NCBI GenBank assembly: GCA_963920635.1
Contig: OY987298.1
Location: forward strand, 82,655,454-82,719,453
Length of the DNA: 64,000 nt
Origin: Pseudeuparius sepicola
Lineage: Eukaryota > Arthropoda > Insecta > Coleoptera > Anthribidae
Reading direction: 5' to 3'
The notes under the pieces are model-generated. The model was not told where the DNA came from. It saw nothing but the letters and a program-made list of their open reading frames with translations, and did no database searches. Each line of letters starts with the position of its first letter. The stretch's first letter is position 1. Both the position numbers and the translations under genes were made by a program. Below, piece after piece: positions 1 through 35,964 of this stretch.

Positions 1-468
1 CTTTGACGACGCATTAACGAAGCGTTGACGAGTGTGGAAGTGCGTGGACCCTCCAACTCCCAGAATCGCAACTTACACCAGATCAAACTCAACTGTGGAA
101 TCTTGTGACGTCACAGAGATGCTACTTTACATTTCTTTTAAGTAGTTAACCTAACCTAACATTATTGTCGCGGTGACCAAGAGGTTATCGACTGGTGAAC
201 CGATTGCCATTGGATTTGGGAGAGGTGTATCAAAGGCGGATTAAGTCAGTTTTGACCAATGGTAATCGGTTCACCAGTCGATAACCTCTTGGTCACCGCG
301 ACAATAATGTTAGGTTAGGTTAACTACTTAAAAGAAATGTAAAGTAGCATCTCTGTGACGTCACAAGATTCCACAGTTGAGTTTGATCTGGTGTAAGTTG
401 CGATTCTGGGAGTTGGAGGGTCCACGCACTTCCACACTCGTCAACGCTTCGTTAATGCGTCGTCAAAG
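1..468. repeat. Long inverted repeat (foldback), arms 213 bp
   Basis: Bases 1-213 pair with 256-468 almost without mismatch, around a 42-bp loop (214-255). The left arm opens with CTTTGACGACGCATTAACG and the right arm closes with its complement. Since the left arm begins at base 1, the structure may extend beyond the window. Each arm holds the short run CTAACCTAAC and a CRE-like TGACGTCA. There is no open reading frame. It is most likely a foldback-type MITE; no superfamily can be assigned because the outer flank is missing. Confidence 0.85.
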
Positions 469-3813: not shown

Positions 3814-5664
3814 AAAATGGGACAGCCACATCACTACTTTTTTTGCCTTGTATATTTCCAAACTGGCTGTTAGATGTGTTTCTCACCTTAAAAAATTAAA
3901 GCCAATATTTTTTTTGGACCCTCAAACTTGCAACACAATTAGGTTTCACATCTCTGGCATATTTCTCATTTATTTTATATATACGTAGGTATAAGTTTCA
4001 TTGTTTAATAAAACCAACTCGGCACTTTTCACGTCCTATGCGTCGCACTTGCTTCAGTAGATTCTCGGTCGTGGCCACAGATAAAGACTCTATCGAGGCG
4101 TTGTAATAAATATATGAAAAGTCTGAGTTTCGTGTTTGTTTTTCTTTGGAAAGATGGAAGTGTATCAGTACCTACTTCAGTATAATAGATACGCGTAGTT
4201 CAGTGAAATTTTGGATTACGGCAGTATCTATCTATGGAATTTGAACGGTTACTGGTTGTTTTTCCCGTGAAAATGACTGTGCCGTTAGAAAAATGATGTT
4301 TGGTTATATCTGATAGCTCGGGGATGTTTATTTTACTGTCTGGGGCATTAGATGTAACCTGATTTCTTTTTATACATCATCAAGAATCTTTCGGTGAGTT
4401 GTATTTTGTTTTCTTATCTCTAGGGTATTTTTTTTATGTACTTGCGTCGCATTTTGAAACCTATATCGTAAAACCGGTGGTGGCACCCTGTGTTTAAAAA
4501 CTATACTTCGAAAAAACATCTTGTCTGATCCAATTTTGTTATCATTTTCGTAAATGGGGTAAACAAATTAAACGTTAGCAATTATATTTGTATAAAAAAA
4601 AATTTTGTCGAAAAAGAATTTGGCAAAAAAAAATTGGCAAAAAAAAAATTCGACAAAAAAAAATTTGGCAAAAAAAATGTCAAAAAAAAATGTACAAAAA
4701 AAAATTTTGACAAAAAAAATTTTGACAAAAAAAAAATTTGGCAAAAAAAAATTTTGACAAAAAAAATTTTGACAAAAAAAATTTTGACAAAAAAAAAATT
4801 TGGCAAAAAAAAATTTGGCAAAAAAAAATTTGGCAAAAAAAAATTTGGCAAAAAAAAATTTTGGCAAAAAAAATTGTCAAAAAAAAAATTTGCCAAAAAA
4901 AAATTTTGACGAAAAAAAAATTTGGAAAAAAAAATTTTGACGAAAAAAAAATTTGAAAAAAAAAATTTTGAAAAAAAAAATTTTACAAAAAAAAATTTTG
5001 CAAAAAAAAAATTTTGGTAAAAAAAAATTTTGGTAAAAAAAAATTTTGGCAAAAAAAATTTTGGCAAAAAAAAAATTTTGGCAAAAAAAAATTTTGGCAA
5101 AAAAAAAATTGACAAAAAAAAATTTTGGCAAAAAACTTCTACAAAAAATCACAAAAAATTTTCACCTGTCTGAATGACAGTCGGTCCTCCGCCTATTAAG
5201 ATATAGCTTTTACTTCCTTTATATAAGTTTTCGTTTCCAAGATATCAAGCGGTTTATAAATGGGACAGCTGGTATATTTACATTTTTTTCTTTCTTTTGC
5301 TCATGTAATCCTTGGGAATTTTTTTACGAAAGGTTTCCAAATATCTAGCTGTTTAAAAATGGGACAGCTGGTATATACTTACTTGCATCTTGGAGCACTC
5401 GAACTGATACGTGGAATCACGCACCCTTCTTATATATTTATCTGGTCAGCAGAGCCGCGTTTGCCTACCAAGGTTTTTTCCTAACCTTATATATTTTTTG
5501 AATCCACCGGTATAAAATATCGTCATTATTTCCTTCTGTGGGGAACTAAAAAATATTTACTTTCAAATAAGGTTGAGGAAACCGGTATTTAAAAAAGTAA
5601 TAACCCCTAAAATTTTTCCAAACGAGATGAACTGAAACAGCTAGGGTGTATAAAATGGGACAGC
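3814..5664 (+). repeat. Dispersed motif AAAATGGGACAGC, four occurrences
   Basis: The 12-13-base motif occurs at 3814-3826, 5258-5269, 5356-5367 and 5652-5664, usually preceded by TATAAA-like sequence and followed by a pyrimidine-rich stretch. The two middle copies lie ~98 bp apart in a diverged tandem duplication. Between 5160 and 5800 I see no gene. The function is unknown; it may be a fragment of an old repeat family. Confidence 0.5.
4587..5145. repeat. A-rich minisatellite, unit about A(7-9)TTTTGGC
   Basis: The unit is a 14-17-bp block of seven to nine A, then TTT(T), then GGC or GAC, repeated roughly 35 times. The variable A-run length shifts the frame constantly, so six overlapping ORFs made of Phe/Ala/Lys or Lys/Phe/Gly appear on both strands. 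They have no protein-like composition and are products of the repeat. Confidence 0.95.
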
Positions 5665-6777: not shown

Positions 6778-6900
6778 TTAATTGTGTAAGTCAATATGTT
6801 TTATCTTCATTTTAATTTCATATAACATAAGTTCATATTTCAATGCTTCTAAATTCTTCAAATATTGTTGCAGTTTTCTTCTGTACTCCAGCTTCGTCAT
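6778..6900 (-). CDS. Small ORF (40 aa) overlapping the TIR gene as ATGA
   Basis: The start codon overlaps the stop of the preceding TIR gene (ATGA), and the frame stays open for 40 residues to a TAA, closely followed by AATAAA on the same strand. The product is rich in Lys, Glu and Leu and predicted to be helical (starts MTKLEYRRKLQQYL). A positional counterpart of 33 aa with the same ATGA overlap and similar charge lies at 59754-59855 in Polinton-2. This suggests a real second cistron translated by termination-reinitiation. Function unknown. Confidence 0.5.
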   Translation of the reverse strand: MTKLEYRRKLQQYLKNLEALKYELMLYEIKMKIKHIDLHN

Positions 6901-7205
6901 GGTTCTACAATAAATTCGATATTTGTAGATCGGCCGACGGGTCCAAGACTCTTCATGTAATACCTCCTTCCGTTACCGATATCCCTATTAATTTCTTCGA
7001 TCCGTTGGGGCGTAAACTCGGCCGTGTATCGTTGCGGCAGCACCGTCTTAAATTCTTCGAACTCTACGTAGACCTTCTCTCCGTATTGCGTGTTCACTTT
7101 GTCCACGCTCGTGATTTGAAAATTTTCATCCACGTCCATATTTTGAACGCTTTCGAATTTCTTGACGATCAAATTCTTGTTCAGGTGATTCAGGAACGAC
7201 TGCAT
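6897..7205 (-). CDS. Polinton TIR protein (~100 aa), Polinton-3 copy
   Basis: This is a 102-aa protein starting MQSFLNHLNKN and ending with a SLGPVGRSTNIEF tail. It aligns along its length with the TIR genes of Polinton-2 at 36010 and 60145; shared blocks are the N-terminal FLN-LN-N, the centre TQYGEKVYVEFEEF, LPQR, and the C-terminal LGPVG-STNI-F. The TYG-VVVE...LPQR pattern looks like a small beta-barrel, possibly an OB-fold single-stranded-DNA-binding protein serving protein-primed replication, but that is inference. A TATA box (7245-7250) lies upstream and its stop overlaps the next start as ATGA. This copy is intact. Confidence 0.75.
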   Translation of the reverse strand: MQSFLNHLNKNLIVKKFESVQNMDVDENFQITSVDKVNTQYGEKVYVEFEEFKTVLPQRYTAEFTPQRIEEINRDIGNGRRYYMKSLGPVGRSTNIEFIVEP

Positions 7206-7244
7206 TTTGAACTCGGCAAATCAGACTGTGGGAAATTGTAAGTG

Positions 7245-7250: not shown

Positions 7251-8360
7251 ACGGGAAAACTGCTCTTGCGCACGAATCACCCCACCAAGCCGTTGGAGTG
7301 GGGGTTGCCCCGTCGTTGGAGTGGGGGGGGGGGTCAACTGGGGGTCACACGTGGCCCAAAGGTTAACCTATCAGGATCTAGGGGTCAACTGGGGTCATCC
7401 GGTGACGTCACGTGACCTCGGGCATGACGTAGCCACTTTGCTCCCGTGACCTCGGGCCGTAGGGGACTCTCAGGATCAAGGGGTCAACTGAGGTCAAAGT
7501 GGTCCCGTACTCTCTTTGTATTACTACTGGAGTTTTGTGCTTTGATAGCTGTTAGTATCATATAAAATACAAAATATAAGGGAAACGTCAATGTTATCGT
7601 CTGAGAACTTTTGTAGCGCCCTCCAACGGGTGTTGTGAGTAGATAAGCTATGAGAGTTCGGCCTCACGATTCCCATGTTAATCGCCCATAAGAGATTTTT
7701 GCGCCGAAATCGTACCATAACCTCACTTTTTCACCCAACTATGCAGTAGGTACTAATACGCGCGACGAAGTCGCGGCCAATCTCGACGCGCTGTTTTAGC
7801 AGGGTTCCGCTGGCTCCTGCAGGCCCCACCGGTTCCCACAGACTTAGCAGGCCCCGCAGGCCTCTTTAACGACTTTCACCGCAGGCTCCAGCTAAATTAA
7901 AAATTACTATTAAAAAATAAAATATCTTACCAGGATTCGAACCTTAGCCCACATTCCAAAACCAAACACTCTGCATGTAAGTAAACAGGGCCGCGCCGTC
8001 GACGTGTGCAATGTGTGCGGCGCACACAGGCGCCAGGTACGACGGGCGCCAAAAGGCGTCGAATAGCGACCCAAAGTAATTGGACATAACCTAGGTTTTT
8101 GACATCAAACGTTGAAAACAAGAATCCCCTTAAAAACCATAATTTTCAAGATCTCCTATAATAGTTTACAAATTTAGTAATCTCTATTTAATAAATTGCA
8201 AATTGCAAACTTATTTAAAGCATGTTAAGAGATATGAAATGAATTATAGAGATCCTATAGACTAAATGCGGTCAGCAAGCCTTATTATAATCTGCATTTA
8301 AACAGGAAATTCTATAGAAACAATCCTGCCCGTTTCAAGGGTTGAAAAAAATTTAAATTT

Positions 8361-8720
8361 TGTAACTTGGAAAATTGTCATTGTATTGGCAAATTACCGG
8401 TTGATTTGCAAATTTTTTCAACCTTTAACACGGGCAGACAAAGAAAATTGTTTTCTAATACAGTCACCCCCAAGTATGGCAGCTGCAGTATATGGTCTTG
8501 TGAAACGGAACTAGAAAACTTGGAAAATTCTCATTGTATTGGCAAATTACCGCTCGGTTTGACAAATTTTATTATTTTTTCAACCCCTAAAACGGGTAAA
8601 GAAAACTGTTTACTCCCAAAGTTACCCCCATGTATGCCCTCTCTATCTAGCTGCAGTATTGGTCTTGTGAAACGGAACTGGAAAACTTGAAAAATTCTCA
8701 TTTAATTGGCAAATTACTTC
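8361..8720 (+). repeat. ~160-bp tandem repeat inside the hAT element
   Basis: CTTGGAAAATT(G/C)TCATTG recurs near 8366, 8520 and 8686, each followed by GGCAAATTAC and, later, GTCTTGTGAAACGGAACT. That gives two full copies and one partial copy. Confidence 0.75.
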
Positions 8721-8879
8721 TCAGAGTTATAGTCTTGAGCCGTAAGCGCTCTAAACTCAAAACCGTTTGCTGTACCCGCGTTTCACGAAACCCGAGAAAT
8801 AAAATTCCTCTTCAACAATCGCTACGTCAAAAATCGTGGCTGGCAAAAGCGTGACTAAGTTCACACAAACCGCTTCCGC

Positions 8880-9410
8880 CAGGTCATTATCGAAACATCG
8901 AAAAGGGTCTAAACGTCTCAAAGAACGACTTTAAAACATCTAAGCGAGTCGAAAAGTGTCTAGACGTCTCGACAAACACTCGAAAAGCGTCTAAAAATAT
9001 CGAAAAACGACGCAAAAACGTCTAGGCGATTCGAAAAGCGTCTAAACTACTCGAAAAGGGCTCGAAAAAGTCTAAGCGACTCGAAAAACATCTAAGTCAC
9101 TCGAGAAGCGTTTCGAAGAGTCTCGAGACGCGAGACGCTTCCTACGAGCGTTCTGGAGCAGACGTGAATTCATCAATATGGCCATGAGATGGGAGATTAT
9201 TGACCGTCAACTTACTGGCGATCTTTATGAATTCACTTCCGTTTCAGAACTCTCGTAGGAAACGTCTCGAGACGCTTCGAGACGCTTTTCGAGTAGATTA
9301 GACGTTTTTCGAGTCGATTAGAGGCTTTTCGAGTCACTTAGATCCTTAGATGCTGTTCGAAGCGCCTAGGCGTTTTTCGATACTTTTAAGATGCTTTTCG
9401 AGTAGGCGCA
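8880..9410. repeat. Foldback composed of ~20-bp CGAAAA..GTCTAA repeats
   Basis: 8890-9160 is a run of variants of GACTCGAAAAGCGTCTAA, and 9225-9410 carries the complementary run; the pair TCGAGACGCGAGACGC / GTCTCGAGACGC sits next to the loop. Arms made of short tandem repeats recall Drosophila FB elements in architecture only. A related motif array lies at 17830-17950 beside the Polinton-1 spacer. Confidence 0.7.
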
Positions 9411-10537
9411 AAATTTTAGCCATCCGACAGAGAGCTCTGAGCTCCTCAGCCGCCATAGCCATATTGGGTGCATTCTAGGTTATTTGTGTGCATTTCATGG
9501 GCGCCATAAAAAAAATTGCACACAGGCGCCACTAAGCATCGGCGCGGCCCTGTAAGTAAAATTCTAGGAAATGCTTGGCAGTGGGGCAATAATCTCGACG
9601 CGCTGTTGTAGCAGGGCTCCACTGGCTCCCGCAGGCCTCGCCGGTCTCTGTAGACTCAGCAGGTCCCTTTAACGATGTGTACCGCAGGCCCCGACTAAAT
9701 TAAAAAATTACTATTAACAATAAAATACCTTACCCGGATTCGAACAATAACCATCATTCCTACGCCAAACACCCGACATATATGTAGTATTTCTGCGAAT
9801 GCATCGCAGCCGGGCGCAAGGTGGATGACTCACATCCGCTACCCGGAACTTGTCAGGACAGGTTGACAATCTAAAAACAATGCTCTCTACTTAGATAAAA
9901 ATAGAATGTCCAATAAGATACATTTTTTTCACACACTTTTATATATAAGTATATATTAGAATATTATAAAATATTTAAGCCCCATATAGTTCGAATTTGA
10001 ATGGGATATTATGTTACATGGGTAATATATCTCAACACTTCGTACACAAACAAAACTCGCTCGTTCTTTACAGTTTTATTACTGTGAATTCGGTACCTAC
10101 TAAAGCGGCAGACTTGGGATGCCGCAGTAGCAAATACAATATGAAGCTCAGCTCTGATGTATACTAAAAATGTTATTATAATCAAACTTGAGACGCACAC
10201 ATATTTAAAAATATAAATACCGCCGGATGAATGCAAGGTCAATTTACGGAATATAGCAAAACAATTAGATTATGGACATGGATATTAATTTCTTTAGGTA
10301 AAGGTAATAAACATTTATAATTTATAGTTAAATAAATAATTTTACACTAAGGTATGGGGAGGGTATACTTTTATTTTAGTTTTGTGTTTAGAATTACTTG
10401 TATTTATAGGACCATATGTGACCGGATACACCAAAAATATTAAATTTACATCAGTTCTTATGAGAAACACGAACAGATCGGGCCTCGCGAGGGGGCCTTT
10501 TTGCAAAATGTTTAGTACTCCGTCCGACCTTTAAGGG

Positions 10538-10544
10538 ATATATA
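10538..10544 (+). promoter_or_regulatory. TATA box upstream of left PolB region
   Basis: ATATATA lies ~30 bp before a TTCATTC initiator-like site and ~100 bp before the first ATG (10643). The mirror copy lies at 23498-23504 on the minus strand. Confidence 0.4.
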
Positions 10545-10642
10545 GGAGGGTGTGGTGATCCAACAGTTCATTCTAGCAACAACTGTCGCTACGTCATTAC
10601 AAGTGCTCGCCGTTAGCCGTGGAACAGGTATCAACTTGCAAA

Positions 10643-10789
10643 ATGGAAACAATAAATAGCACAGTTACCAAGTTGCAAACTGAATTGTTTGATGGTAGCC
10701 AACTGGATGTAGAGAATGGATTAAAAGAATGTGGCAAAATTATTAAAGTCGTAAATGTTTACTTGAAAAAGGCTACCTCTGTATCGTAA
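10643..10789 (+). CDS. Small ORF (48 aa) upstream of left PolB
   Basis: An ATG-initiated 48-codon frame (METINSTVTKLQTELF...) ends in TAA shortly before the PolB reading frame. It is the first ATG after the TATA box. It may be the original N-terminal exon of the polymerase, cut off by a stop and frameshift, because the following ~110 bp changes frame before the conserved GGG-KR...RVKW segment. The alternative is a separate leader peptide. An identical copy lies at 23253-23399 on the minus strand. Confidence 0.35.
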   Translation: METINSTVTKLQTELFDGSQLDVENGLKECGKIIKVVNVYLKKATSVS

Positions 10790-10892
10790 AAACAGCATTT
10801 AAAAAAAAGTTAGAAATTATAAACACTTATTTAAAAGGTTTATAATTGTCGGAGGTGGAGTTAATAAGCGAAAACAGAGAGCTTCCGATAGA

Positions 10893-13800
10893 GTGAAGTG
10901 GGAAAATTTACAATCAGCATTTAGTGGAAGAATCAGGACAGGCTTAATTATTAACTTGAAGCATTCAGTAGACGTCAAGGCATTTTTGAGAGATTGTTTA
11001 AACCTTTTCAGTCGACGAATAAAAAATGCACTAAAAATTAATATGGTTAAATGTAATGCAGTGTTCTGTGGACTATTTGAGCTCAAGAAATCAGATGAAG
11101 TAATTCAAGAACTAAAATACTTTAATACTAAAAATATGGCAATTTATCAAGACACTGACCTGGTTAAATGGTTTAAGGATAATATCGAGGACGCCATTTC
11201 TATTCAATTAGATGAATTTCAGGAAAAAGAGTCTAGTTGGGCATTAAAGGCTATTATGAACATTCAAATAAATATCAACAAGTATACACCACTTTTGGGA
11301 TCATCGTACATTGATTTACCGGATACTATTAAAAGAAAGGAAGCTTGTATCAACGTGAAGAATGAAGATGAACTCTGCTTTGGATGGAGCGTGACTTCTG
11401 CTCTATACCCAGTCAGATTGAATTCTGATAGACCCAGCACTTACCCCCACCCCTCAACCGTTCTGAATTTAGAAGAATTAAACTGCCCTATGACACTACG
11501 ACAGATTCCACGATTTGAAAAGCAAAACGATATATCAATCAATGTGTACCTTCTACGAAAATCCAATAGAAACTTCAACACTTACCCTACTTATCTCACT
11601 AAAAATAAGAAAACTAAACACGTAAATTTACTACTGATACAAAATCATTATTTTAATGATGATGAAGAACTGGAAGAAGCAAGTAAAACTCCAGTTAGAT
11701 ACCATTTTGTTTGGATTAAGGACCTTTCCCGCCTGCTATCTACGCAGCTGGGCAAACGTAATGGGAAAAAATTCATCTGCGATAGATGCTTACACTATTT
11801 TCATTCTGAGGAAAAGTTAACAACGCATTATGAAGATTGTAAAAATATGAATGAGTGCAGAGTAAGGTTACCAGCAGAAGATAAAAAATTCTTGAAATTT
11901 AGTAATTTTAAAAACAAGGAAAAGGTGCCATTTATTATCTATGCGGACATAGAAAGCATTCTGAAACCTATTGAAGAGAAGAACAAGTACCAGGAACATG
12001 CACCCTGTAGTGTAGGATATTATTTGAAATATAGCTATGACGATACATTATCATTCTACAAATCATATACTGGAACAGATTGTATGGAGTGGTTTAGTAA
12101 TGAACTGAATCAGCTGGCCGAAGATATAGAAACAGTTTTCCTATGTCCGCTATCTATGGACCCGCTAACATCTCAACAGGAGATGGGCTTCAATATGTCA
12201 ACAGCGTGCCACGTTTGCGAGGAACCGTTCACCGCTGATCTGAAAAAGGTTCGAGATCATAACCATCTGACTGGAAAATTTAGAGGAGCCGCCCATGACG
12301 AATGCAATATTAATTATCAGGACGCCCATGTTGTACCCGTAGTATTCCACAATTTAAGCGGCTATGACGCTCATTTCGTGATTAAAAGCATTGCCAGTGA
12401 CATTGAAGGTCGCGTTGAACTGCTGCCAGTCAATAAGGAAAAATACATCTCGTTCACAAAATATATTCCTGAAAATAGTATCAAATTTAGATTTATTGAT
12501 AGCTACCGATTTATGGCTGGAGGACTAGATTCACTTGCGGCTAACTTGAGCAGTTATCCTATTCTTAGAAGTCAATTTGCACATTTACCTGAAGCTAAGT
12601 TTAAACTGCTTACAAGAAAGGGTGTTTTCCCTTATGATTTTGTGGACTCCATGGAGCAGCTGTATTATAATCAACTTCCACAGAAAGTTTGTTTTTATAA
12701 CAGATTAGAAGAAAGGCCTATTTATGAAAAGGAGTACGTTCATGCACAGAAAGTATGGAGGGAGTTTGAATGTAAAAATATCAGAGAATATGTTGAGCTG
12801 TACATGAAGGCAGATATACTTCTCTTATCAGACATATATGAAACGTTTAGAACCAGCTGTATAAGCACATATAAACTGGATCCTGCTCATTATTATACAT
12901 TGCCAGGATATACGTGGGACTGTATGCTGAAATACACCGGGGTTGAACTAGAACTTCTCACAGAAATTGACAAAGTAATATTTATAGAGAAAGGTATTAG
13001 AGGAGGCCTCTCACAGGTGTCAAAGCGCCGCTCTACTGCAAATAATAAATATATGCCAAACTATGATTCCGAAAAACCCTCAATATATCTGTCCTACTTT
13101 GACGTAAATAACCAATATGGGTGGTCAATGTCCCAATCACTTCCATACGCAGGATTTAAATGGACAGATCAGAATATTAATATACAAAGTATCCCAGACA
13201 ACTCCAATATTGGATACTTTCTAGAAGTTGACTTAGCTTATCCAGACTCCATACACGACGTACATAAGAACCTTCCTTTCTGCCCTACACAATGTAAGGT
13301 AGAGGGGGAATCAATAGTAGAAAGTAAAAAATGCTCAAAACTGATGGCAACCTTACATAATAAGGAAAAATATGTCATTCATTATAGGGCGTTGAAACAG
13401 GCTTTGGCTAATGGACTAATACTTAAAAAAATACATAGGGTCCTAGAATTCAAACAGTCTCCATGGTTGAAATCATATATTGATCTCAACACCAAACTCC
13501 GCACACAAGCAACTAGTGCATTCGAAAAAGATTTGTATAAACTACTAAACAACGCAGTCTTCGGAAAAACCATGGAAAACGTCAGAAATCATTCTGTAGT
13601 AAAACTAATAAATAAATGGGAAGGGCGTTACGGCGCAGAAGCATTAATTTCAAGACCAGAATTTAAATCGGTATCTATTTTTGAAGAAAACCTGGTAATA
13701 ATTGAATTAAATAAATCAGAAGTATTTCTTAATAAACCCATATACGTAGGTATGGCGATCTTAGATCTAGCTAAAACTACCCTCTACGACTTCCACTATA

Positions 13801-13904
13801 ACTACATGCTACCAGAATTTGGAAACGATTGTACAATACTTTACACAGATACAGACTCACTAATTTATGAGATACTTAATAAGGATAATACGACGAGATT
13901 GTGA
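10893..13904 (+). CDS. polB: Protein-primed family B DNA polymerase, left-arm copy (main open part)
   Basis: This 1003-codon frame holds all polymerase landmarks. The exonuclease motifs are YADIES (~350), [10 protein letters not shown] (~490) and [11 protein letters not shown] (~637). The polymerase motifs are DVNNQYG (~735), LLNNAVFGK (~885) and YTDTDS (~985). Before the second exonuclease motif is a Cys/His segment (C-x2-C ... [19 protein letters not shown]) like the zinc site of endonuclease VII-type proteins, and a CxxC...HxxxxC finger precedes the first. The first codon is GTG, not a real start: homology to the Polinton-2 polymerase continues upstream (10803-10892). The frame is lost near 13890, so the C-terminus lies in another frame. 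It is probably inactive as it stands. Confidence 0.9.
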
Positions 13905-14409
13905 CACATATTTTGATACTAGCGACTTCCCCCCAGAAAATAATTATGGTATACCACTTGTCAACAAAAAAGTGCTAGGATTGTTGAAGGAAGAAAATGG
14001 CGGTAGAATAATGACAGATTTCGTGGGGCTGAGATCTAAATTGTATGCAACTAAAGTTTTAAGAACCAGGGAAGATGAAAATATGCAGAAAATAAAGTTA
14101 GAAAGAGATGGATTAACTCTAGAAGAAATTAATGAAATTATGCAAAATGGAGATATAACCAAGAAAGCAAAGGGGATTAAAAAATCTGTAGTTAAGAGAA
14201 AAATCACGTTTGAAGACTACATATACTGTCTGGAAGAATAGAAAGAAAAAAGTATTAGCCAAAATTTAATAAGATCCGAAAAACATAACGTATACTCCAT
14301 TACACAAGAAAAAATTGCTCTAAGTCCACATGATGATAAAAGACAAATTGTATTCAATAGCTATGAAACACTTCCCTGGGGACATTACTCTATAATGCAA
14401 GGAAATTAA
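13867..14409 (+). pseudogene. polB: C-terminal part of left-arm PolB, frameshifted and with an in-frame TAG
   Basis: The polymerase resumes in a second frame after ~13890 with the conserved [19 protein letters not shown] and [14 protein letters not shown] segments. A TAG at 14239-14241 interrupts it, and the same frame then continues to a TAA at 14407-14409, ending in a ETLPWGHYS segment that matches the C-terminus of the Polinton-2 polymerase. So at least one frameshift and one nonsense change disable this copy. The mirror copy carries the same lesions. Confidence 0.8.
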
Positions 14410-16088
14410 CTATAATGTATGTGTATAATGTTATTATAATATATTATTATAGATTATATAATTAAAGGCTGAGTAAAAATCATTGTTTATGTACATACTA
14501 TGTAAAACAGAAGTTTAATGTACTTGCAACAAATATATATAATAAAATAAGTGGAAACTTCCGAACTGGTTTTATTGAAAAGTAAATACACCCTCATAGA
14601 AAAAATATTAAAAATATCATCAGGTATTAATTTATAGTTATATATCAATATAAAAATAATACTATGTTCTTAGGAATACATCTCGGGCAGGCATCTGTCG
14701 GTCGGGTTATTGATTACTTCTTGAGCACGTCCGTTTAAACTAAATAAGCAGACAGAAATTAATATTACATTTTAGGCATCGTTGTTTATTTAAAGTATAA
14801 CCCATTAGAGGTCGCTTCAGAACGGTCGGTCGGATATAGGTATATGGAGGAAAAATATTCTTGATAAATATAGATGGCGGTATCAGTACCTATTGATATA
14901 CATATATTAATAATCAGATAGTAATCAATATAAAGTAATAACATAATAGTTATTTATGTACCAAGGCACTGAAGTCCAACTTTTTATGACTCATGTGGAA
15001 TTTAGTTGCCGAGGCCTCTGGCCTTATATATATATTTTTGAAATCGGAAAAAAGTGTTTATTAGGCAAGAAAATAATCATACGGGATGATCCGTCCATGA
15101 ACCAACTGCGCGCGGCATTGCTTGACTTTTACGATCGCTCTACCTAGGTCAAGTATGACAAGACACGGCGTCTTCAAACAGAAAAACCAAACTGCTGCTT
15201 GTTGTGCAGCCTACATAACAAATCTTTTGATATTAAAACCTACTCGGAGGCTGGCGTCGTTAGACCATCCCCCGAGTCTTCAGGTGAGGTTCCGATGCTT
15301 CCGGCGCCCCCAAACAAGAAAAAACATGCGATATCTAAGTGTGATCCTGGAGGAACTATAACCGGGAATCACCGGGTGTATAGTTGGTTGATGGTTGACT
15401 TTCTGTCTTTGTTTGTAGCATGTTTTTGGAGTAGTATGGATATATTTAATCTTGGAGTCAAAATAAAGGGCATTTTAACAATGGGGCACCACGTCTATAG
15501 GTTTTGACGTCATTGGTTACTTAGTAGATAAAATAACGAGTTTTGCAGCCAGAAAGGTATATATTAACTTATTTTTATAATACCAAGCTTTCGGTCTACT
15601 TCGTGACCTTCATTTATTATTATTTATTTATTGTCATTGGTTACTTCAGTGCCGATTTCTGAGCTTTTAATGACGATTTTGGGATACTTCGCTGCCGATT
15701 TCAAGAAAAAGAATATACTCTAGAAGAGTACATTCTTCTATGGTAATAACAATCATAGGATTTTGTGGGATAGGGGATAGGTCCAAACCAATTCTGAAAG
15801 AAGTAGGAAATAGACGAAAAATTAAAGAATCATCATTTCTAGGAAATATGGACAACTGTGTTGCTGAATGTTCAGTGGAATTCACTAAAATATTATTGCC
15901 AGATATTCAAAGAGAAGTTAGCATAGATAATTAGATAAAACACAGGGTAGAATATCAGACAGGTGGCTAGGCTATTGTTTCTGTTGTCATGACATTTTAA
16001 CTTGACATCTATTAATCTACCATTTCACTTTGACGTGACATGATCTTTAAAAAAGGAGAAAGATTTTTTTTCCGAAAGCTCAGAAAAC
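14410..16088 (+). other. Left-arm tail beyond PolB, no recognised gene
   Basis: AT-rich sequence with several short ORFs (for example 14956-15147, 15199-15507 and 15740-15934), exactly mirrored in the right arm. The 15199 frame stays open upstream of its ATG and has a Cys-rich start, but I recognise none of them. They could be exons of a lost Polinton gene. Confidence 0.4.
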
Positions 16089-17953
16089 AAATTTGTTGAA
16101 GTTATTTTTTTGAGTTAAACGTTCAAAGTTTCGTTCATTTACTGTTAAGAATTTATGAATTTTCCAGGCAACTTGAAAAGGCTGTCTTTTAATCAGTTTG
16201 GTGTCGAAAAACCCAATTAAAAAAATTAAATAGATAGTTTCATGAAACTTTCGATAAAAAAATAATGATAAGTGATAAAAATAGCATAGGTAGTAAAATA
16301 AATATATAATAATTATACCATTACAACATTTTCAAAACTGTTCTTTTGATGGATAAGGGATAAAGACAAAAACGAAACCCTCACAATATTTTGTATGCTT
16401 GGTGGAAACAGTGGAATTTGTCCGAATTCTGTTTTAGTTTTTATTGTTCCAAAAAAACCGAACAAAACAGAAACTCGACTAGTCCGTTTGGTGTTTGGTT
16501 TGGTTTTCAGTAGGAGAAATAAAAAGCTTGTAAAAATAGCACAAAAAAGAAATGAAATGAGATGCTAAAAATGAGATTATTTCTCATCATATGAACAGGA
16601 TAACGATATGTACCAAAAGAGTCTGGTTGGACTTTGAAAACCGTTGTAAATTTACAAATAAACATTAACAAGTTAGAGTTTTTTACGGGACAAAACGTAA
16701 AAATTTCTATTGAAAACGCTTCGGAAGATTACTAATGATATGAATTAACTTTTTTTTGGAATATGTCTGATTGTATTACTTATAGTTAAACCATTGTACC
16801 AAGTTAGAGCTTTTTTTATATATCTTGAATGAAACAACGTTGTTTTATTCTTAACCTTTTTTTTTCATTTCCAAAACATTATCTCATGCAAGAGGTTCTA
16901 ATACAAAACCAGGTTTTAAAATTAAAAAACAGGTGCCAAAAATCCAAAGTATGACGTCACACCGCTGGTTAAAAAAGTGATGTGTGTTCCAACAACAGAC
17001 AAGAGGACCTTAGTCGTCTCCTGATCTGCTTGTAAATGCGAATTAAATCTAAACTATTTAACAAAATGTATTGCCCAATATTGACTTAATATATTTTCGG
17101 ATAAATTAGTTATCAATTAAATTTTGAAACTAGTTATTTTTGAAGAACACAGCTAATGCGTTCTTATATAAACATTGTAAACTAACTGGGCCTCATATTA
17201 GCTAAACTTCACAGCTGAATAGCTTCAGCTAAACTTCGCCGCTGTGACCGTAAAAGGATGTGCAGAACACCCGTGTAGACGTGTACTGTTGGTAAAGCCG
17301 TGTTTATTATATGACAAATTTAGTTATTAATTAAATTACCCAGACTTTTTATAATTATTTTCGGCATACCTTCGTTTTTCTGTTTTGGAGAAAATGATGC
17401 TATTGGACTGCTGGACAACAAAATTATATAGGATCCATAACACGTTTCATTCTTCAAATCGATCAATTCGACGAGAAGGAACAAATTAATTTTTTAGTAT
17501 AATAATTTTGGAAAACCACTTCTTTCGTTTCTGAAAATAAAATGCTTACAGATATGGTTTTGAACCCTGATTATTTTACACGATTTACCCTTTCGAGGCC
17601 CAACATTACGATCCACTGCTTCAAACTAAGCTGGAGAAATGTAAAATTTGTTTCGTACAGTTTTCTGTATGGAATGTTCAGCTTCAAATATGTGCTCTTT
17701 GTGTAGACAAGTTATATGGAATAAAATGAGGACATAGCTTCAATTAATACATATATTTTTTCAATAATAAAAATAATATTACGATACTCATTTTTGAATG
17801 CCCCTTATCCTACCAAGAAAAGCTTAAAGCGCCTAAGTAACTTGAAAAACGACTCAGAGAAACGACTAGACGACTTGAAAAAACAACTAGACGACTCGAA
17901 AAAACGACTAAACGACTTGGAAAACGACTAGTCGTTTTCCGAGTCGTTTAGTC
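16089..17953. other. Central spacer of the Polinton-1 palindrome
   Basis: 1865 bp of AT-rich single-copy sequence without a gene. Its right edge (about 17830-17950) is a run of ~20-bp repeats of the form CGACTAGACGACTTGAAAAA, ending in the small palindrome AACGACTAGTCGTT. This array touches the inner border of the right arm, so it may mark the fold point where the palindrome formed. Confidence 0.6.
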
Positions 17954-19632
17954 GTTTTCAGAGCTTTCGGAAAAAAAATCTTTCTCCTTTTTTAAAGATC
18001 ATGTCACGTCAAAGTGAAATGGTAGATTAATAGATGTCAAGTTAAAATGTCATGACAACAGAAACAATAGCCTAGCCACCTGTCTGATATTCTACCCTGT
18101 GTTTTATCTAATTATCTATGCTAACTTCTCTTTGAATATCTGGCAATAATATTTTAGTGAATTCCACTGAACATTCAGCAACACAGTTGTCCATATTTCC
18201 TAGAAATGATGATTCTTTAATTTTTCGTCTATTTCCTACTTCTTTCAGAATTGGTTTGGACCTATCCCCTATCCCACAAAATCCTATGATTGTTATTACC
18301 ATAGAAGAATGTACTCTTCTAGAGTATATTCTTTTTCTTGAAATCGGCAGCGAAGTATCCCAAAATCGTCATTAAAAGCTCAGAAATCGGCACTGAAGTA
18401 ACCAATGACAATAAATAAATAATAATAAATGAAGGTCACGAAGTAGACCGAAAGCTTGGTATTATAAAAATAAGTTAATATATACCTTTCTGGCTGCAAA
18501 ACTCGTTATTTTATCTACTAAGTAACCAATGACGTCAAAACCTATAGACGTGGTGCCCCATTGTTAAAATGCCCTTTATTTTGACTCCAAGATTAAATAT
18601 ATCCATACTACTCCAAAAACATGCTACAAACAAAGACAGAAAGTCAACCATCAACCAACTATACACCCGGTGATTCCCGGTTATAGTTCCTCCAGGATCA
18701 CACTTAGATATCGCATGTTTTTTCTTGTTTGGGGGCGCCGGAAGCATCGGAACCTCACCTGAAGACTCGGGGGATGGTCTAACGACGCCAGCCTCCGAGT
18801 AGGTTTTAATATCAAAAGATTTGTTATGTAGGCTGCACAACAAGCAGCAGTTTGGTTTTTCTGTTTGAAGACGCCGTGTCTTGTCATACTTGACCTAGGT
18901 AGAGCGATCGTAAAAGTCAAGCAATGCCGCGCGCAGTTGGTTCATGGACGGATCATCCCGTATGATTATTTTCTTGCCTAATAAACACTTTTTTCCGATT
19001 TCAAAAATATATATATAAGGCCAGAGGCCTCGGCAACTAAATTCCACATGAGTCATAAAAAGTTGGACTTCAGTGCCTTGGTACATAAATAACTATTATG
19101 TTATTACTTTATATTGATTACTATCTGATTATTAATATATGTATATCAATAGGTACTGATACCGCCATCTATATTTATCAAGAATATTTTTCCTCCATAT
19201 ACCTATATCCGACCGACCGTTCTGAAGCGACCTCTAATGGGTTATACTTTAAATAAACAACGATGCCTAAAATGTAATATTAATTTCTGTCTGCTTATTT
19301 AGTTTAAACGGACGTGCTCAAGAAGTAATCAATAACCCGACCGACAGATGCCTGCCCGAGATGTATTCCTAAGAACATAGTATTATTTTTATATTGATAT
19401 ATAACTATAAATTAATACCTGATGATATTTTTAATATTTTTTCTATGAGGGTGTATTTACTTTTCAATAAAACCAGTTCGGAAGTTTCCACTTATTTTAT
19501 TATATATATTTGTTGCAAGTACATTAAACTTCTGTTTTACATAGTATGTACATAAACAATGATTTTTACTCAGCCTTTAATTATATAATCTATAATAATA
19601 TATTATAATAACATTATACACATACATTATAG

Positions 19633-20175
19633 TTAATTTCCTTGCATTATAGAGTAATGTCCCCAGGGAAGTGTTTCATAGCTATTGAATACAATTTGTC
19701 TTTTATCATCATGTGGACTTAGAGCAATTTTTTCTTGTGTAATGGAGTATACGTTATGTTTTTCGGATCTTATTAAATTTTGGCTAATACTTTTTTCTTT
19801 CTATTCTTCCAGACAGTATATGTAGTCTTCAAACGTGATTTTTCTCTTAACTACAGATTTTTTAATCCCCTTTGCTTTCTTGGTTATATCTCCATTTTGC
19901 ATAATTTCATTAATTTCTTCTAGAGTTAATCCATCTCTTTCTAACTTTATTTTCTGCATATTTTCATCTTCCCTGGTTCTTAAAACTTTAGTTGCATACA
20001 ATTTAGATCTCAGCCCCACGAAATCTGTCATTATTCTACCGCCATTTTCTTCCTTCAACAATCCTAGCACTTTTTTGTTGACAAGTGGTATACCATAATT
20101 ATTTTCTGGGGGGAAGTCGCTAGTATCAAAATATGTGTCACAATCTCGTCGTATTATCCTTATTAAGTATCTCAT
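19633..20175 (-). pseudogene. polB: C-terminal part of right-arm PolB, frameshifted
   Basis: Mirror image of 13867-14409: the same second reading frame, the same in-frame TAG (complement at 19801-19803) and the same terminal segment. No difference from the left copy is visible here. Confidence 0.8.
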
Positions 20176-23149
20176 AAATTAGTGAGTCTGTATCTGTGTA
20201 AAGTATTGTACAATCGTTTCCAAATTCTGGTAGCATGTAGTTATAGTGGAAGTCGTAGAGGGTAGTTTTAGCTAGATCTAAGATCGCCATACCTACGTAT
20301 ATGGGTTTATTAAGAAATACTTCTGATTTATTTAATTCAATTATTACCAGGTTTTCTTCAAAAATAGATACCGATTTAAATTCTGGTCTTGAAATTAATG
20401 CTTCTGCGCCGTAACGCCCTTCCCATTTATTTATTAGTTTTACTACAGAATGATTTCTGACGTTTTCCATGGTTTTTCCGAAGACTGCGTTGTTTAGTAG
20501 TTTATACAAATCTTTTTCGAATGCACTAGTTGCTTGTGTGCGGAGTTTGGTGTTGAGATCAATATATGATTTCAACCATGGAGACTGTTTGAATTCTAGG
20601 ACCCTATGTATTTTTTTAAGTATTAGTCCATTAGCCAAAGCCTGTTTCAACGCCCTATAATGAATGACATATTTTTCCTTATTATGTAAGGTTGCCATCA
20701 GTTTTGAGCATTTTTTACTTTCTACTATTGATTCCCCCTCTACCTTACATTGTGTAGGGCAGAAAGGAAGGTTCTTATGTACGTCGTGTATGGAGTCTGG
20801 ATAAGCTAAGTCAACTTCTAGAAAGTATCCAATATTGGAGTTGTCTGGGATACTTTGTATATTAATATTCTGATCTGTCCATTTAAATCCTGCGTATGGA
20901 AGTGATTGGGACATTGACCACCCATATTGGTTATTTACGTCAAAGTAGGACAGATATATTGAGGGTTTTTCGGAATCATAGTTTGGCATATATTTATTAT
21001 TTGCAGTAGAGCGGCGCTTTGACACCTGTGAGAGGCCTCCTCTAATACCTTTCTCTATAAATATTACTTTGTCAATTTCTGTGAGAAGTTCTAGTTCAAC
21101 CCCGGTGTATTTCAGCATACAGTCCCACGTATATCCTGGCAATGTATAATAATGAGCAGGATCCAGTTTATATGTGCTTATACAGCTGGTTCTAAACGTT
21201 TCATATATGTCTGATAAGAGAAGTATATCTGCCTTCATGTACAGCTCAACATATTCTCTGATATTTTTACATTCAAACTCCCTCCATACTTTCTGTGCAT
21301 GAACGTACTCCTTTTCATAAATAGGCCTTTCTTCTAATCTGTTATAAAAACAAACTTTCTGTGGAAGTTGATTATAATACAGCTGCTCCATGGAGTCCAC
21401 AAAATCATAAGGGAAAACACCCTTTCTTGTAAGCAGTTTAAACTTAGCTTCAGGTAAATGTGCAAATTGACTTCTAAGAATAGGATAACTGCTCAAGTTA
21501 GCCGCAAGTGAATCTAGTCCTCCAGCCATAAATCGGTAGCTATCAATAAATCTAAATTTGATACTATTTTCAGGAATATATTTTGTGAACGAGATGTATT
21601 TTTCCTTATTGACTGGCAGCAGTTCAACGCGACCTTCAATGTCACTGGCAATGCTTTTAATCACGAAATGAGCGTCATAGCCGCTTAAATTGTGGAATAC
21701 TACGGGTACAACATGGGCGTCCTGATAATTAATATTGCATTCGTCATGGGCGGCTCCTCTAAATTTTCCAGTCAGATGGTTATGATCTCGAACCTTTTTC
21801 TGATCAGCGGTGAACGGTTCCTCGCAAACGTGGCACGCTGTTGACATATTGAAGCCCATCTCCTGTTGAGATGTTAGCGGGTCCATAGATAGCGGACATA
21901 GGAAAACTGTTTCTATATCTTCGGCCAGCTGATTCAGTTCATTACTAAACCACTCCATACAATCTGTTCCAGTATATGATTTGTAGAATGATAATGTATC
22001 GTCATAGCTATATTTCAAATAATATCCTACACTACAGGGTGCATGTTCCTGGTACTTGTTCTTCTCTTCAATAGGTTTCAGAATGCTTTCTATGTCCGCA
22101 TAGATAATAAATGGCACCTTTTCCTTGTTTTTAAAATTACTAAATTTCAAGAATTTTTTATCTTCTGCTGGTAACCTTACTCTGCACTCATTCATATTTT
22201 TACAATCTTCATAATGCGTTGTTAACTTTTCCTCAGAATGAAAATAGTGTAAGCATCTATCGCAGATGAATTTTTTCCCATTACGTTTGCCCAGCTGCGT
22301 AGATAGCAGGCGGGAAAGGTCCTTAATCCAAACAAAATGGTATCTAACTGGAGTTTTACTTGCTTCTTCCAGTTCTTCATCATCATTAAAATAATGATTT
22401 TGTATCAGTAGTAAATTTACGTGTTTAGTTTTCTTATTTTTAGTGAGATAAGTAGGGTAAGTGTTGAAGTTTCTATTGGATTTTCGTAGAAGGTACACAT
22501 TGATTGATATATCGTTTTGCTTTTCAAATCGTGGAATCTGTCGTAGTGTCATAGGGCAGTTTAATTCTTCTAAATTCAGAACGGTTGAGGGGTGGGGGTA
22601 AGTGCTGGGTCTATCAGAATTCAATCTGACTGGGTATAGAGCAGAAGTCACGCTCCATCCAAAGCAGAGTTCATCTTCATTCTTCACGTTGATACAAGCT
22701 TCCTTTCTTTTAATAGTATCCGGTAAATCAATGTACGATGATCCCAAAAGTGGTGTATACTTGTTGATATTTATTTGAATGTTCATAATAGCCTTTAATG
22801 CCCAACTAGACTCTTTTTCCTGAAATTCATCTAATTGAATAGAAATGGCGTCCTCGATATTATCCTTAAACCATTTAACCAGGTCAGTGTCTTGATAAAT
22901 TGCCATATTTTTAGTATTAAAGTATTTTAGTTCTTGAATTACTTCATCTGATTTCTTGAGCTCAAATAGTCCACAGAACACTGCATTACATTTAACCATA
23001 TTAATTTTTAGTGCATTTTTTATTCGTCGACTGAAAAGGTTTAAACAATCTCTCAAAAATGCCTTGACGTCTACTGAATGCTTCAAGTTAATAATTAAGC
23101 CTGTCCTGATTCTTCCACTAAATGCTGATTGTAAATTTTCCCACTTCAC
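20138..23149 (-). CDS. polB: Protein-primed family B DNA polymerase, right-arm copy (main open part)
   Basis: Mirror copy of 10893-13904, again 1003 codons with identical exonuclease and polymerase motifs. The only protein difference I find is one residue in the Cys/His segment, [13 protein letters not shown] here versus [13 protein letters not shown] on the left. It shares the GTG pseudo-start and the distal frameshift. Such near identity means the duplication is recent or the arms are homogenised by gene conversion. Confidence 0.9.
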
Positions 23150-23252
23150 TCTATCGGAAGCTCTCTGTTTTCGCTTATTAACTCCACCTCCGACAATTAT
23201 AAACCTTTTAAATAAGTGTTTATAATTTCTAACTTTTTTTTAAATGCTGTTT

Positions 23253-23399
23253 TTACGATACAGAGGTAGCCTTTTTCAAGTAAACATTTACGACTTTAAT
23301 AATTTTGCCACATTCTTTTAATCCATTCTCTACATCCAGTTGGCTACCATCAAACAATTCAGTTTGCAACTTGGTAACTGTGCTATTTATTGTTTCCAT
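23253..23399 (-). CDS. Small ORF (48 aa) upstream of right PolB
   Basis: Mirror copy of the ORF at 10643-10789 with the same ATG, length and stop. It is probably a detached N-terminal piece of the polymerase gene. Confidence 0.35.
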   Translation of the reverse strand: METINSTVTKLQTELFDGSQLDVENGLKECGKIIKVVNVYLKKATSVS

Positions 23400-24927
23400 T
23401 TTGCAAGTTGATACCTGTTCCACGGCTAACGGCGAGCACTTGTAATGACGTAGCGACAGTTGTTGCTAGAATGAACTGTTGGATCACCACACCCTCCTAT
23501 ATATCCCTTAAAGGTCGGACGGAGTACTAAACATTTTGCAAAAAGGCCCCCTCGCGAGGCCCGATCTGTTCGTGTTTCTCATAAGAACTGATGTAAATTT
23601 AATATTTTTGGTGTATCCGGTCACATATGGTCCTATAAATACAAGTAATTCTAAACACAAAACTAAAATAAAAGTATACCCTCCCCATACCTTAGTGTAA
23701 AATTATTTATTTAACTATAAATTATAAATGTTTATTACCTTTACCTAAAGAAATTAATATCCATGTCCATAATCTAATTGTTTTGCTATATTCCGTAAAT
23801 TGACCTTGCATTCATCCGGCGGTATTTATATTTTTAAATATGTGTGCGTCTCAAGTTTGATTATAATAACATTTTTAGTATACATCAGAGCTGAGCTTCA
23901 TATTGTATTTGCTACTGCGGCATCCCAAGTCTGCCGCTTTAGTAGGTACCGAATTCACAGTAATAAAACTGTAAAGAACGAGCGAGTTTTGTTTGTGTAC
24001 GAAGTGTTGAGATATATTACCCATGTAACATAATATCCCATTCAAATTCGAACTATATGGGGCTTAAATATTTTATAATATTCTAATATATACTTATATA
24101 TAAAAGTGTGTGAAAAAAATGTATCTTATTGGACATTCTATTTTTATCTAAGTAGAGAGCATTGTTTTTAGATTGTCAACCTGTCCTGACAAGTTCCGGG
24201 TAGCGGATGTGAGTCATCCACCTTGCGCCCGGCTGCGATGCATTCGCAGAAATACTACATATATGTCGGGTGTTTGGCGTAGGAATGATGGTTATTGTTC
24301 GAATCCGGGTAAGGTATTTTATTGTTAATAGTAATTTTTTAATTTAGTCGGGGCCTGCGGTACACATCGTTAAAGGGACCTGCTGAGTCTACAGAGACCG
24401 GCGAGGCCTGCGGGAGCCAGTGGAGCCCTGCTACAACAGCGCGTCGAGATTATTGCCCCACTGCCAAGCATTTCCTAGAATTTTACTTACATGCATAGTG
24501 TTTGGCTTTGGAATGTGGAAGGTTCGAATCCTGGTAAGATATTTTATTTTTAATAGTAACTTTTAATTTAGCTGGGGCCTGCGGTGAAAGTCGTTAAAAG
24601 GGGCCTCGGGGTCTGCTAAGTCTGTGGGGACTGGTGGGACCTGCGGGAGCCAGCGGAACCCTGCCAAAACAGCGCGTCGAGATTGGCCGCGACTTCGTCG
24701 CGCGTATTAGTACCTACTGCATAGTTGGGTGAAAAAGTGAGGTTATGGTACGATTTCGGCGCAAAAATCTCTTGTGGGCGATTAACATGGGAATCGTGAG
24801 GCCGAACTCTCATAGCTTATCTACTGTTGTGGACATTAATGTACTTTTTTTATTAGGCACTAGGTGTCGCCAGCGTATTATCTTTAGCGCGAAATTTAAA
24901 TTAATGATCAGACTGCCCTTTTGCTTT

Positions 24928-35873: not shown

Positions 35874-35920
35874 GAGAGTTCTAAGCCAAACCTGTCAGAC
35901 TTGTCTGGCTTAGAACTCTC
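35874..35920. repeat. Terminal hairpin 14 bp inside the left Polinton-2 end
   Basis: GAGAGTTCTAAGCCA and TGGCTTAGAACTCTC form perfect 15-bp arms around a 17-nt loop. The same hairpin is in the right TIR at 60235-60281. Its fixed distance from the end suggests a role in recognition of the replication origin or terminus. Confidence 0.75.
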
Positions 35921-35964
35921 ATAGGGTTTTGGTGGTGGGAGAGCTCCCCCACTCCAAGAATAGC

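What the first reader, a model, noticed from the sequence alone, without database searches (positions are those of the whole stretch)
7638..24825. A Polinton that is one giant palindrome with a polymerase gene in each arm
The sequence shows AG...CT termini, a 6-bp GTTGTG duplication outside both ends, and arms that mirror each other (x pairs with 34042-x from 9553 to 16088 without an indel). Normal Polintons have TIRs of up to ~1 kb around ten or so genes; here the inverted repeat covers ~6.9 kb per side and only PolB remains, twice. Because one target duplication surrounds the whole structure, the palindrome either inserted as such or arose in place. It resembles a snap-back defective genome of a protein-primed replicon. 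This could be a non-autonomous, self-complementary Polinton class mobilised in trans by a full element such as Polinton-2.
Basis: partly seen in the sequence, partly recalled or inferred. Interest (0 to 1): 0.9.

Follow-up and report, generated by a model that had tools for sequence, protein, structure and literature searches.

The report
Mobile family of giant palindromic Polintons
A 17-kb virus-like jumping element in a beetle-like insect genome is built as two mirror-image halves, and it belongs to a whole family of such mirror-image elements that have inserted at many sites, which suggests they copy themselves through a folded hairpin form.

Summary
The palindrome is real: 9551-16088 pairs with 24491-17954 over 6538 bp with 2 mismatches and no gap, between AG...CT ends and a GTTGTG duplication. 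It is not a one-off. In the window's own 769-Mb assembly, 13 of 15 loci with this PolB (85% DNA identity or more; 40 of 301 candidates scored) carry it as an inverted pair; 0 of 12 relatives at 70-80% do. Four further elements with the same ends are palindromes without PolB. Target duplications are perfect in 12 of 15 palindromes examined, and all 12 differ, so palindromes insert as palindromes. Arms of one element are sisters in 10 of 13 elements. One copy of each sub-family has an intact centre with a 42-nt or about 73-99-nt loop; 8 of 11 other centres assessed lost one side. The window 'spacer' reads as the surviving half of an inner arm. Both window PolB copies share the same private lesions; the left arm holds a nested hAT-like insert. 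Best reading: a Polinton derivative that folded back at a hairpin-forming repeat, whose integrated form is an inverted dimer. Polinton-2 is not shown to be the helper.

The parts
7632..7637 (.). target-site duplication GTTGTG, left copy
   Evidence: read directly
7638..7985 (+). left outer terminal repeat (AGTAGATAAGCTATGAGAG...); 38 other near-full-length copies listed elsewhere in the genome at 88-98% (40 of 445 candidates scored, two of them this element's own ends)
7986..9542 (.). nested hAT-like insert (label recalled from end and TSD form; no transposase tested), 8-bp duplications at 7978-7985 and 9543-9550; absent from the right arm
9551..16088 (+). left palindrome arm (inner part)
   Evidence: self-BLAST 99.97% over 6538 bp to 24491-17954
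10803..13904 (+). PolB pseudogene, left copy, main open stretch (1033 codons); disrupted near 10.8 kb and 13.9 kb, with an in-frame stop near 14.24 kb
13864..14241 (+). PolB pseudogene, left copy, C-terminal stretch in another frame
16089..17953 (.). unpaired spacer, read as the surviving half of an inner arm: the copy C1:18.17-18.19 Mb has it whole in one arm and, as far as that stretch was read, positions 1290-1865 of it in the other; C11:37.3 has positions 1-1023 in both arms
17901..17958 (.). short hairpin at the central deletion scar
17954..24491 (-). right palindrome arm (inner part)
19801..20178 (-). PolB pseudogene, right copy, C-terminal stretch
20138..23239 (-). PolB pseudogene, right copy, main open stretch; one amino-acid difference from the left copy
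24482..24825 (-). right outer terminal repeat; 94.8% to the left one, most differences private to this end
24826..24831 (.). target-site duplication GTTGTG, right copy

Best explanation
This is one old, damaged member of a mobile family of giant-palindrome Polinton derivatives. SHOWN: the family's elements are two inverted copies of one half-genome (end + subterminal repeats + PolB, or a PolB-less version); they have inserted at many sites, most with their own 6-bp duplication; arms within an element are nearly identical while PolB-type elements differ more from each other; the two intact centres found have only a 42-nt or about 73-99-nt loop inside a hairpin-forming sequence; most other copies examined have lost one side of the centre. 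INFERRED: a normal Polinton-type linear replicon that carried a hairpin-forming repeat folded back there during protein-primed strand-displacement copying. The product is a half-genome closed by a hairpin at one end and carrying a terminal-protein origin at the other. Copying round the hairpin gives an inverted dimer with two identical ends, which an integrase acting in trans inserts as a unit. Because both arms are copies of one template, each new insertion starts with identical arms. After insertion the chromosome-borne palindrome loses one side of its centre, arms mutate or are converted, and other transposons land in it. In the window the hAT-like insert separates the diverged outer end from an inner arm that has stayed identical, which points to arm-to-arm conversion stopped by the insert.
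For: Recurrence: 104 end motifs (24 bp, up to 2 mismatches; reversed control 0). PolB in inverted pairs at 13 of 15 family loci and 0 of 12 distant loci, 40 of 301 candidates scored; about 0.01 chance pairs expected. 9 of 9 end pairs fetched whole (of 13 seen besides the window) are palindromes. Distinct insertions: perfect 6-bp duplication in 12 of 15 palindromes examined, all 12 different. Arms: within-element substitution differences 0.02-0.44% against 0.62-1.89% between elements, six PolB-type elements; the only 3 sites with a left/right difference in two elements are gap-edge artefacts. Tree of 1.2 kb: arms sister in 10 of 13 elements, the other 3 almost identical and unresolved. PolB-less: a left/right difference shared by two elements at 1 site only. 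The window's PolB lesions are shared by both its arms and private to it; C11:37.3 and C2:34.6 likewise show the same frame break in both arms. Centres: 42-nt loop with 0 mismatches in the first 100 bp of stem; a second copy with 595 of 600 bases paired around its centre. One-sided central deletions with an endpoint in the loop or within about 20 bp of it in 3 of 3 other PolB-less copies. Older PolB changes show constraint, 9N:11S. The PolB-less central hairpin also occurs elsewhere (window 64-405; L006).
Against: No free hairpin or dimer molecule was seen; only one assembly was read. No integrase or capsid domain was found, so the integrating enzyme is unknown. Identity of arms could also come from gene conversion in the chromosome, and the window element itself suggests that such conversion happens. 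The tree of the PolB-less group is almost star-like with low support at deep nodes. Two of 15 family PolB loci are unpaired. Three of 15 examined palindromes lack a perfect duplication. Three PolB-type centres are altered on both sides (C1:84.2, C2:89.5, C2:111.7). In the window itself the break lies about 100 bp from the presumed centre, not at it. The PolB-type central filler was not shown to be an independent dispersed repeat.
Confidence: 0.68

Rival explanations
1. Stable palindromic transposon without a hairpin replicon: the palindrome arose once, moves as a normal duplex Polinton, and arms stay alike only through gene conversion in the chromosome.
For: Window element: 1 mismatch in 6531 bp of inner arm but 12-16 in about 344 bp of outer end, with the change at the hAT-like insert, as expected if conversion is blocked by heterology. 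Private lesions are shared by both arms.
Against: In the PolB-less group arms of one element can be as far apart as arms of different elements (C10: 0.59% within; 0.41-0.66% to C2:96.8 and C11:42.1), which suggests identical arms at insertion and no conversion since. No ancestral left/right difference was seen to persist across PolB-type elements and only 1 site in the PolB-less group.
Confidence: 0.22
2. Each palindrome formed in place after an ordinary Polinton had inserted, by an inverted duplication between its ends.
For: One target duplication surrounds each structure; the window's outer ends are more diverged than its inner arms.
Against: It would have to happen independently at the family loci with the same arm content and the same centre, while 12 of 12 distant PolB loci escaped. 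Central sequences coincide within each sub-family.
Confidence: 0.04
3. Assembly artefact, such as fold-back reads or a collapsed inverted repeat.
For: Only one assembly; near-identical arms are hard to assemble.
Against: Unique flanks with different duplications, one-arm insertions, element-specific central deletions and arm differences from 0 to 3%. Fold-back reads would duplicate the flank (reasoning, not tested on reads).
Confidence: 0.03
4. The palindromes are kept as hairpin-RNA loci: both PolB copies are transcribed towards the centre, so read-through RNA would fold into long double-stranded RNA and silence Polintons.
For: PolB genes converge on the centre; the genome carries a large, apparently recent load of capsid-encoding Polintons.
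Against: No RNA data; PolB-less palindromes exist too; DNA identity to the more distant PolBs listed is only 70-80%.
Confidence: 0.03

Closest known systems
Polinton/Maverick transposons (polintoviruses, adintoviruses)
   Same: AG...CT ends, terminal inverted repeats, 6-bp target duplication, PolB whose best named relatives are in beetles and which is 50% identical to PolB of Megastigmus wasp adintovirus
   Different: Arms of about 7-8 kb that make nearly the whole element, against TIRs of 46-1447 bp, mean 402 bp, in intact vertebrate Mavericks (PMC8097293, passage read); no integrase, capsid or ATPase found
Snapback genomes of adeno-associated virus
   Same: Self-complementary genome derived from one end of a linear replicon (PMC8235507, abstract read)
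   Different: AAV is hairpin-primed ssDNA (recalled) and these genomes are subgenomic particles; here the form is integrated, has target duplications, and belongs to a protein-primed type
[quoted passage not shown]
   Same: Inverted duplication through a hairpin or hairpin-capped intermediate (PMC10766183, PMC7467729, PMC4689423: titles and abstract starts only)
   Different: Chromosomal rearrangements, not mobile elements that pass the palindrome on to new insertion sites
Hairpin and palindromic derivatives of the yeast linear plasmid pGKL1; symmetric adenovirus recombinants (both recalled, no source read; searches listed none that I opened for this)
   Same: Protein-primed linear replicons that give inverted dimers with two identical ends
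   Different: Laboratory or rare derivatives, not a dispersed genomic family
MITEs / fold-back transposons
   Same: Inverted repeats that make up most of the element; the 325-611 bp minis here are MITE-like
   Different: The large members of one sub-family carry a polymerase gene in each arm, and all belong to the Polinton type by ends and TSD

Membership tests
Polinton/Maverick | 5'-AG...CT-3' termini with terminal inverted repeats | tested here: met
Polinton/Maverick | 6-bp target-site duplication | tested here: met
   window GTTGTG; 12 of 15 palindromes examined perfect and all 12 different
[quoted passage not shown]
   518 homologues at E 0.001 or better, among them insect proteins named DNA-directed DNA polymerase or PolB; broken in the window, an uninterrupted frame survives in the family. 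The Pfam DNA_pol_B_2 model itself did not reach E 0.01 on the window ORF. Protein priming itself not testable here
Polinton/Maverick | retroviral-type (rve) integrase | tested here: not met
   no rve hit in 22 ORFs of the window element (left arm and spacer; all ORFs of 60 aa or more listed, plus the main PolB ORF) nor in 8 ORFs of PolB-less copies; a degraded remnant in shorter frames could be missed
Polinton/Maverick | capsid proteins, protease and packaging ATPase | tested here: not met
   no such Pfam hit in the same ORFs; 0 of 76 listed MCP loci on the palindrome-bearing contigs (of 102 listed in all, 2315 candidates) lie inside a palindrome interval
Non-autonomous Polinton derivative | Polinton ends and TSD without the full gene set | tested here: met
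   as above; minis of 325-611 bp with the same ends
Snap-back (self-complementary) replicon | two identical arms joined by a short loop | tested here: met
   42-nt loop and about 73-99 nt loop in the two intact centres; not in the window copy, whose centre is deleted
Snap-back (self-complementary) replicon | hairpin or inverted-dimer molecule free in the cell | not testable with these tools
   needs DNA from tissue

The most novel reading that the evidence does not exclude
These elements are the integrated inverted dimers of a hairpin-capped half-genome: a linear replicon with a protein-primed origin at one end and a fold-back telomere at the other, created perhaps twice in this genome from hairpin-forming repeats, and passed on through insertions for as long as the family can be traced (PolB divergence up to 4.4%). 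This would be a self-homogenising life cycle that I know of for no other Polinton.
Probability: 0.45. Interest if true: 0.9.

Novelty: new variant of a known kind. Interest (0 to 1): 0.82.

Why it matters
Long perfect palindromes are among the least stable DNA structures (general knowledge), yet here a transposon family seems to live as one. It gives natural, datable replicates of palindrome insertion and of one-sided central deletion, and a genomic record of how protein-primed replicons may fold back. It also suggests that Polinton ends alone (minis of a few hundred bp) are enough to be mobilised, and it makes the question of how Polintons replicate testable in an animal. Six library searches that paired Polinton or Maverick terms with palindrome, fold-back or inverted-repeat terms listed no paper whose title or abstract start describes palindromic Polintons (in only the top 15-20 of 124-1343 papers were listed); closed-access papers and Repbase were not searched.

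Tried and rejected
Ordinary TIRs of a normal element: rejected, arms span nearly everything and carry PolB. Two Polintons inserted side by side in opposite orientation: rejected by the single TSD and by recurrence. Polinton-2 as helper: ends differ and terminal stretches do not match. IMG/VR scan with the window PolB: no match. Scan of bacterial genome contigs with a beetle-like PolB filed under a Rickettsia endosymbiont (P0009), hoping for contaminant contigs of another beetle: 16 pattern matches, none a relative. An earlier idea that the 1.87-kb spacer is the original loop was dropped after the centre of C1:18.17 was read. An earlier idea that the PolB lesions predate the family was dropped: they are private to the window element.

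Results against my reading: 3 of 13 elements without resolved sister arms; 2 of 15 PolB loci unpaired; C1:84.2 (right terminus altered) and C11:33.5 (2 of 6; its right end lacks the outermost bases) have no clean TSD and C2:89.5 has 5 of 6; three PolB-type centres are altered on both sides and the fetched stretch of C2:87 missed most of the centre; the tree of the PolB-less elements has low support at deep nodes. Rows set aside: three sites (10803-10805) discordant in two elements, as gap-edge artefacts, sites with fewer than 8 readable arms. Interiors of C2:59.19, C3:43.77, C7:30.72, C4:49.34 and C2:82.40 were not read.
Full report
1. The observation. The element runs from 7638 to 24825, with AGTAGATAAG/CTTATCTACT termini and GTTGTG on both outer sides. 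Its inner arms, 9551-16088 and 24491-17954, are 6538 bp each, gap-free, with two mismatches; its outer ends pair at 94.8%. Inverted repeats of this length do not arise by chance. The left arm also holds a 1557-bp insert (7986-9542) with CAGGG...CCCTG ends and an 8-bp duplication; the right arm shows the uninterrupted target. I call it hAT-like from recalled end and TSD features.

2. Genes. Each arm contains one PolB reading towards the centre. The main open stretch (1033 codons) has its best named database relatives in beetles at about 57-61% identity, and is 50% identical to PolB of Megastigmus wasp adintovirus. Both copies are disrupted in the same places: two short deletions and premature stops. 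None of the arms compared from five other elements has these lesions (10 arms at the first place, 8 at the other two), so they are private to this element and were copied between its arms. Somewhere in the family an uninterrupted PolB frame persists. No integrase, capsid, protease or ATPase domain was found in 22 ORFs of the window element or in 8 ORFs of PolB-less copies.

3. It is a family. The tool holds the window's assembly (769 Mb, 16 contigs). The 348-bp end has 109 matches, 40 of 445 candidates having been scored. The 24-bp terminal motif occurs 104 times with at most 2 mismatches, against 0 for the reversed control. Of 13 end pairs seen besides the window, I fetched the nine shortest in two pieces each: 9 of 9 are palindromes. 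Five carry PolB in both arms (C11:37.3, C4:42.9, C2:34.6, C2:89.5, C1:84.2 Mb) and four share the ends and part of the arm but gave no PolB match (C11:42.1, C10:8.6, C4:56.9, C2:96.8 Mb). A PolB DNA search (40 of 301 candidates scored) found family-level copies at 15 loci, 13 as inverted pairs; 12 relatives at 70-80% identity are all single in that list. About 0.01 inverted pairs would be expected by chance. One more distant relative, C5:29.17-29.19 Mb, was fetched in two pieces as a control: PolB once (73-75% DNA identity), TIRs of about 1.9 kb, a matrixin metalloprotease gene, TSD TACAGG, not palindromic beyond its TIRs.

4. They insert as palindromes. Of the 10 palindromes held whole (window plus nine), 8 have perfect 6-bp duplications, one has 5 of 6 and one has an altered right terminus. 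Of ten further end pairs, 8 have perfect duplications. Five of those ten are PolB-pair elements: four perfect, and C11:33.5, whose right end lacks its outermost bases, 2 of 6. So 12 of 15 palindromes examined are perfect, and the 12 sequences all differ. Formation in place at each site would need the same rare event many times over.

5. Arms are re-copied. In six PolB-type elements arms of one element differ by 1/6531, 11/6409, 12/4620, 10/4708, 12/2706 and 16/6012, and different elements by 0.62-1.89%. Three sites with a left/right difference in two elements are gap-edge artefacts. In a 1.2-kb tree 10 of 13 elements have sister arms; the other three (C11:37, C2:87, C4:24) are nearly identical to each other and unresolved. 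Arm divergence in that stretch ranges from 0 to 3.0%, so insertions are of many ages, and the palindromic plan reaches back at least 4.4% divergence (C3:41.6). In the PolB-less group arms of one element can be as far apart as arms of different elements (C10: 0.59% within, 0.41-0.66% to C2:96.8 and C11:42.1), which is what identical arms at insertion followed by independent mutation would give. In PolB, changes between arms look neutral (34N:8S:1 stop), private changes shared by both arms are intermediate (33N:16S:2 stops, not significantly different from neutral), and older changes shared across elements are constrained (9N:11S; P = 0.004 against the neutral expectation). The polymerase therefore seems to have been under selection in this lineage, although some of that time may precede the palindrome.

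6. The centre. C2:96.8 is palindromic down to a 42-nt loop (L019 8342-8383), with no mismatch in the first 100 bp of stem and 2 in 240, apart from an indel of about 80 bp between its arms just outside the central hairpin. Its central hairpin also occurs at window 64-405 and in L006. The other three PolB-less copies each keep one side of the centre and lack the other; the break lies in the loop or within about 20 bp of it, and the outer breakpoints differ. Among PolB-type copies, C1:18.17 keeps an intact centre: a 75-bp perfect stem, 595 of 600 bases paired, loop of 99 nt, or about 73 nt if a one-base slip is allowed. Its left arm carries the whole sequence that in the window is the unpaired spacer 16089-17953, and its right arm carries spacer positions 1290-1865 up to the end of the stretch read; C11:37.3 has positions 1-1023 in both arms. 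The window spacer therefore reads as what survived a one-sided central deletion. C11:37.3, C4:42.9, C2:34.6 (with a further internal loss) and C4:24.45 show other one-sided losses; in C1:84.2, C2:89.5 and C2:111.7 the centre itself is lost or altered on both sides; C2:87 could not be judged. So 8 of 11 copies assessed besides the two intact ones are one-sided. One-sided central loss of long palindromes is described for other systems; I recall this and did not read a paper on it.

7. The window copy. Its inner arms differ at 1 of 6531 sites, but its outer ends, beyond the hAT-like insert, differ at 12-16 of about 344 (Fisher P = 3e-15 for 12). Most changes are private to the right end. In the other nine elements the ends differ by 0-4 sites. 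The simplest reading is that conversion between the arms kept the inner part alike after insertion and was stopped by the insert. Gene conversion therefore probably contributes here, but it does not explain why nearly all family members are palindromes.

8. Mechanism (inferred). Protein-primed replication displaces full-length single strands (general knowledge). A strand that carries a hairpin-forming repeat can fold back and prime on itself, giving a half-genome closed at one end. Copying from the remaining origin round the closed end yields an inverted dimer with two identical, integrase-competent ends. The model predicts identical arms at insertion, a centre at a hairpin with a small loop, and different centres for independent origins; the data agree with all three. 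Missing are the free molecules, the integrating enzyme and a single-armed ancestor. The minis (325-611 bp, two inverted ends, perfect TSD in 7 of 11) suggest that the ends suffice for mobilisation in trans.

9. Comparison. By ends, TSD and PolB this is a Polinton derivative; it fails the full Polinton definition because no integrase or capsid gene was found. In intact vertebrate Mavericks TIRs are 46-1447 bp, mean 402 (PMC8097293, passage); a cryptophyte study kept TIRs of 100 bp to 8 kb when mining elements, and its main text holds no word beginning with 'palindrom' (PMC12220804, passages and word count). Snapback genomes are known in AAV (PMC8235507, abstract) and hairpin-capped extrachromosomal DNA in yeast amplification (PMC10766183, title and abstract start). 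I found no report of palindromic Polintons in six searches. I rate it a new variant of a known kind, with a fair chance that the life cycle itself is new.

Noticed in passing
window 35860-60295: A second, capsid-encoding Polinton: ends AGTAGTAAGACAAAGAGAG, TSD CCAGTA, double jelly-roll capsid protein (37284-38510), a BIR+RING protein (38959-39381), PolB in two frames (52527-48770), phospholipase A2-like protein (59681-59220), weak adenain-like protease; a small gene lies inside its TIRs (35914-36339 and mirror), with a look-alike at 6897-7217 beside the palindrome.
   Followed up: partly
genome G000, 102 places listed: The Polinton-2 capsid protein has 2315 candidates, 102 scored: all but one are free of stops, in frames of 404-423 codons, and dozens score identically, so this genome seems to carry a very large and recent burst of capsid-encoding Polintons.
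   Followed up: no
L067-L077 (11 places on C1, C2, C3, C4, C5, C9, C11): Mini-Polintons of 325-611 bp made of two inverted ends, perfect 6-bp TSD in 7 of 11; three (L070, L074, L075) are palindromic over their whole length.
   Followed up: partly
L027/L028 (C5:29171253-29188452): PolB element with a matrixin-type metalloprotease gene split over two frames and tandem repeats in its long TIRs.
   Followed up: partly
G000 C2:82398159-82415684 (L078, L079): The flanks of this end pair are themselves inverted repeats for 133 bp, so the end motif sits inside longer TIRs here; not explained.
   Followed up: partly
window 1-468: Palindromic hairpin repeat (93% self-complementary); part of it (64-405) matches the centre of a PolB-less palindrome at 95%.
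   Followed up: partly
window 4594-5158 and 1005-2256: Tandem or repeated arrays beside the element.
   Followed up: no
P0009: A beetle-like PolB is filed in a protein database under a Rickettsia endosymbiont of Ceutorhynchus assimilis; probably host contamination.
   Followed up: partly
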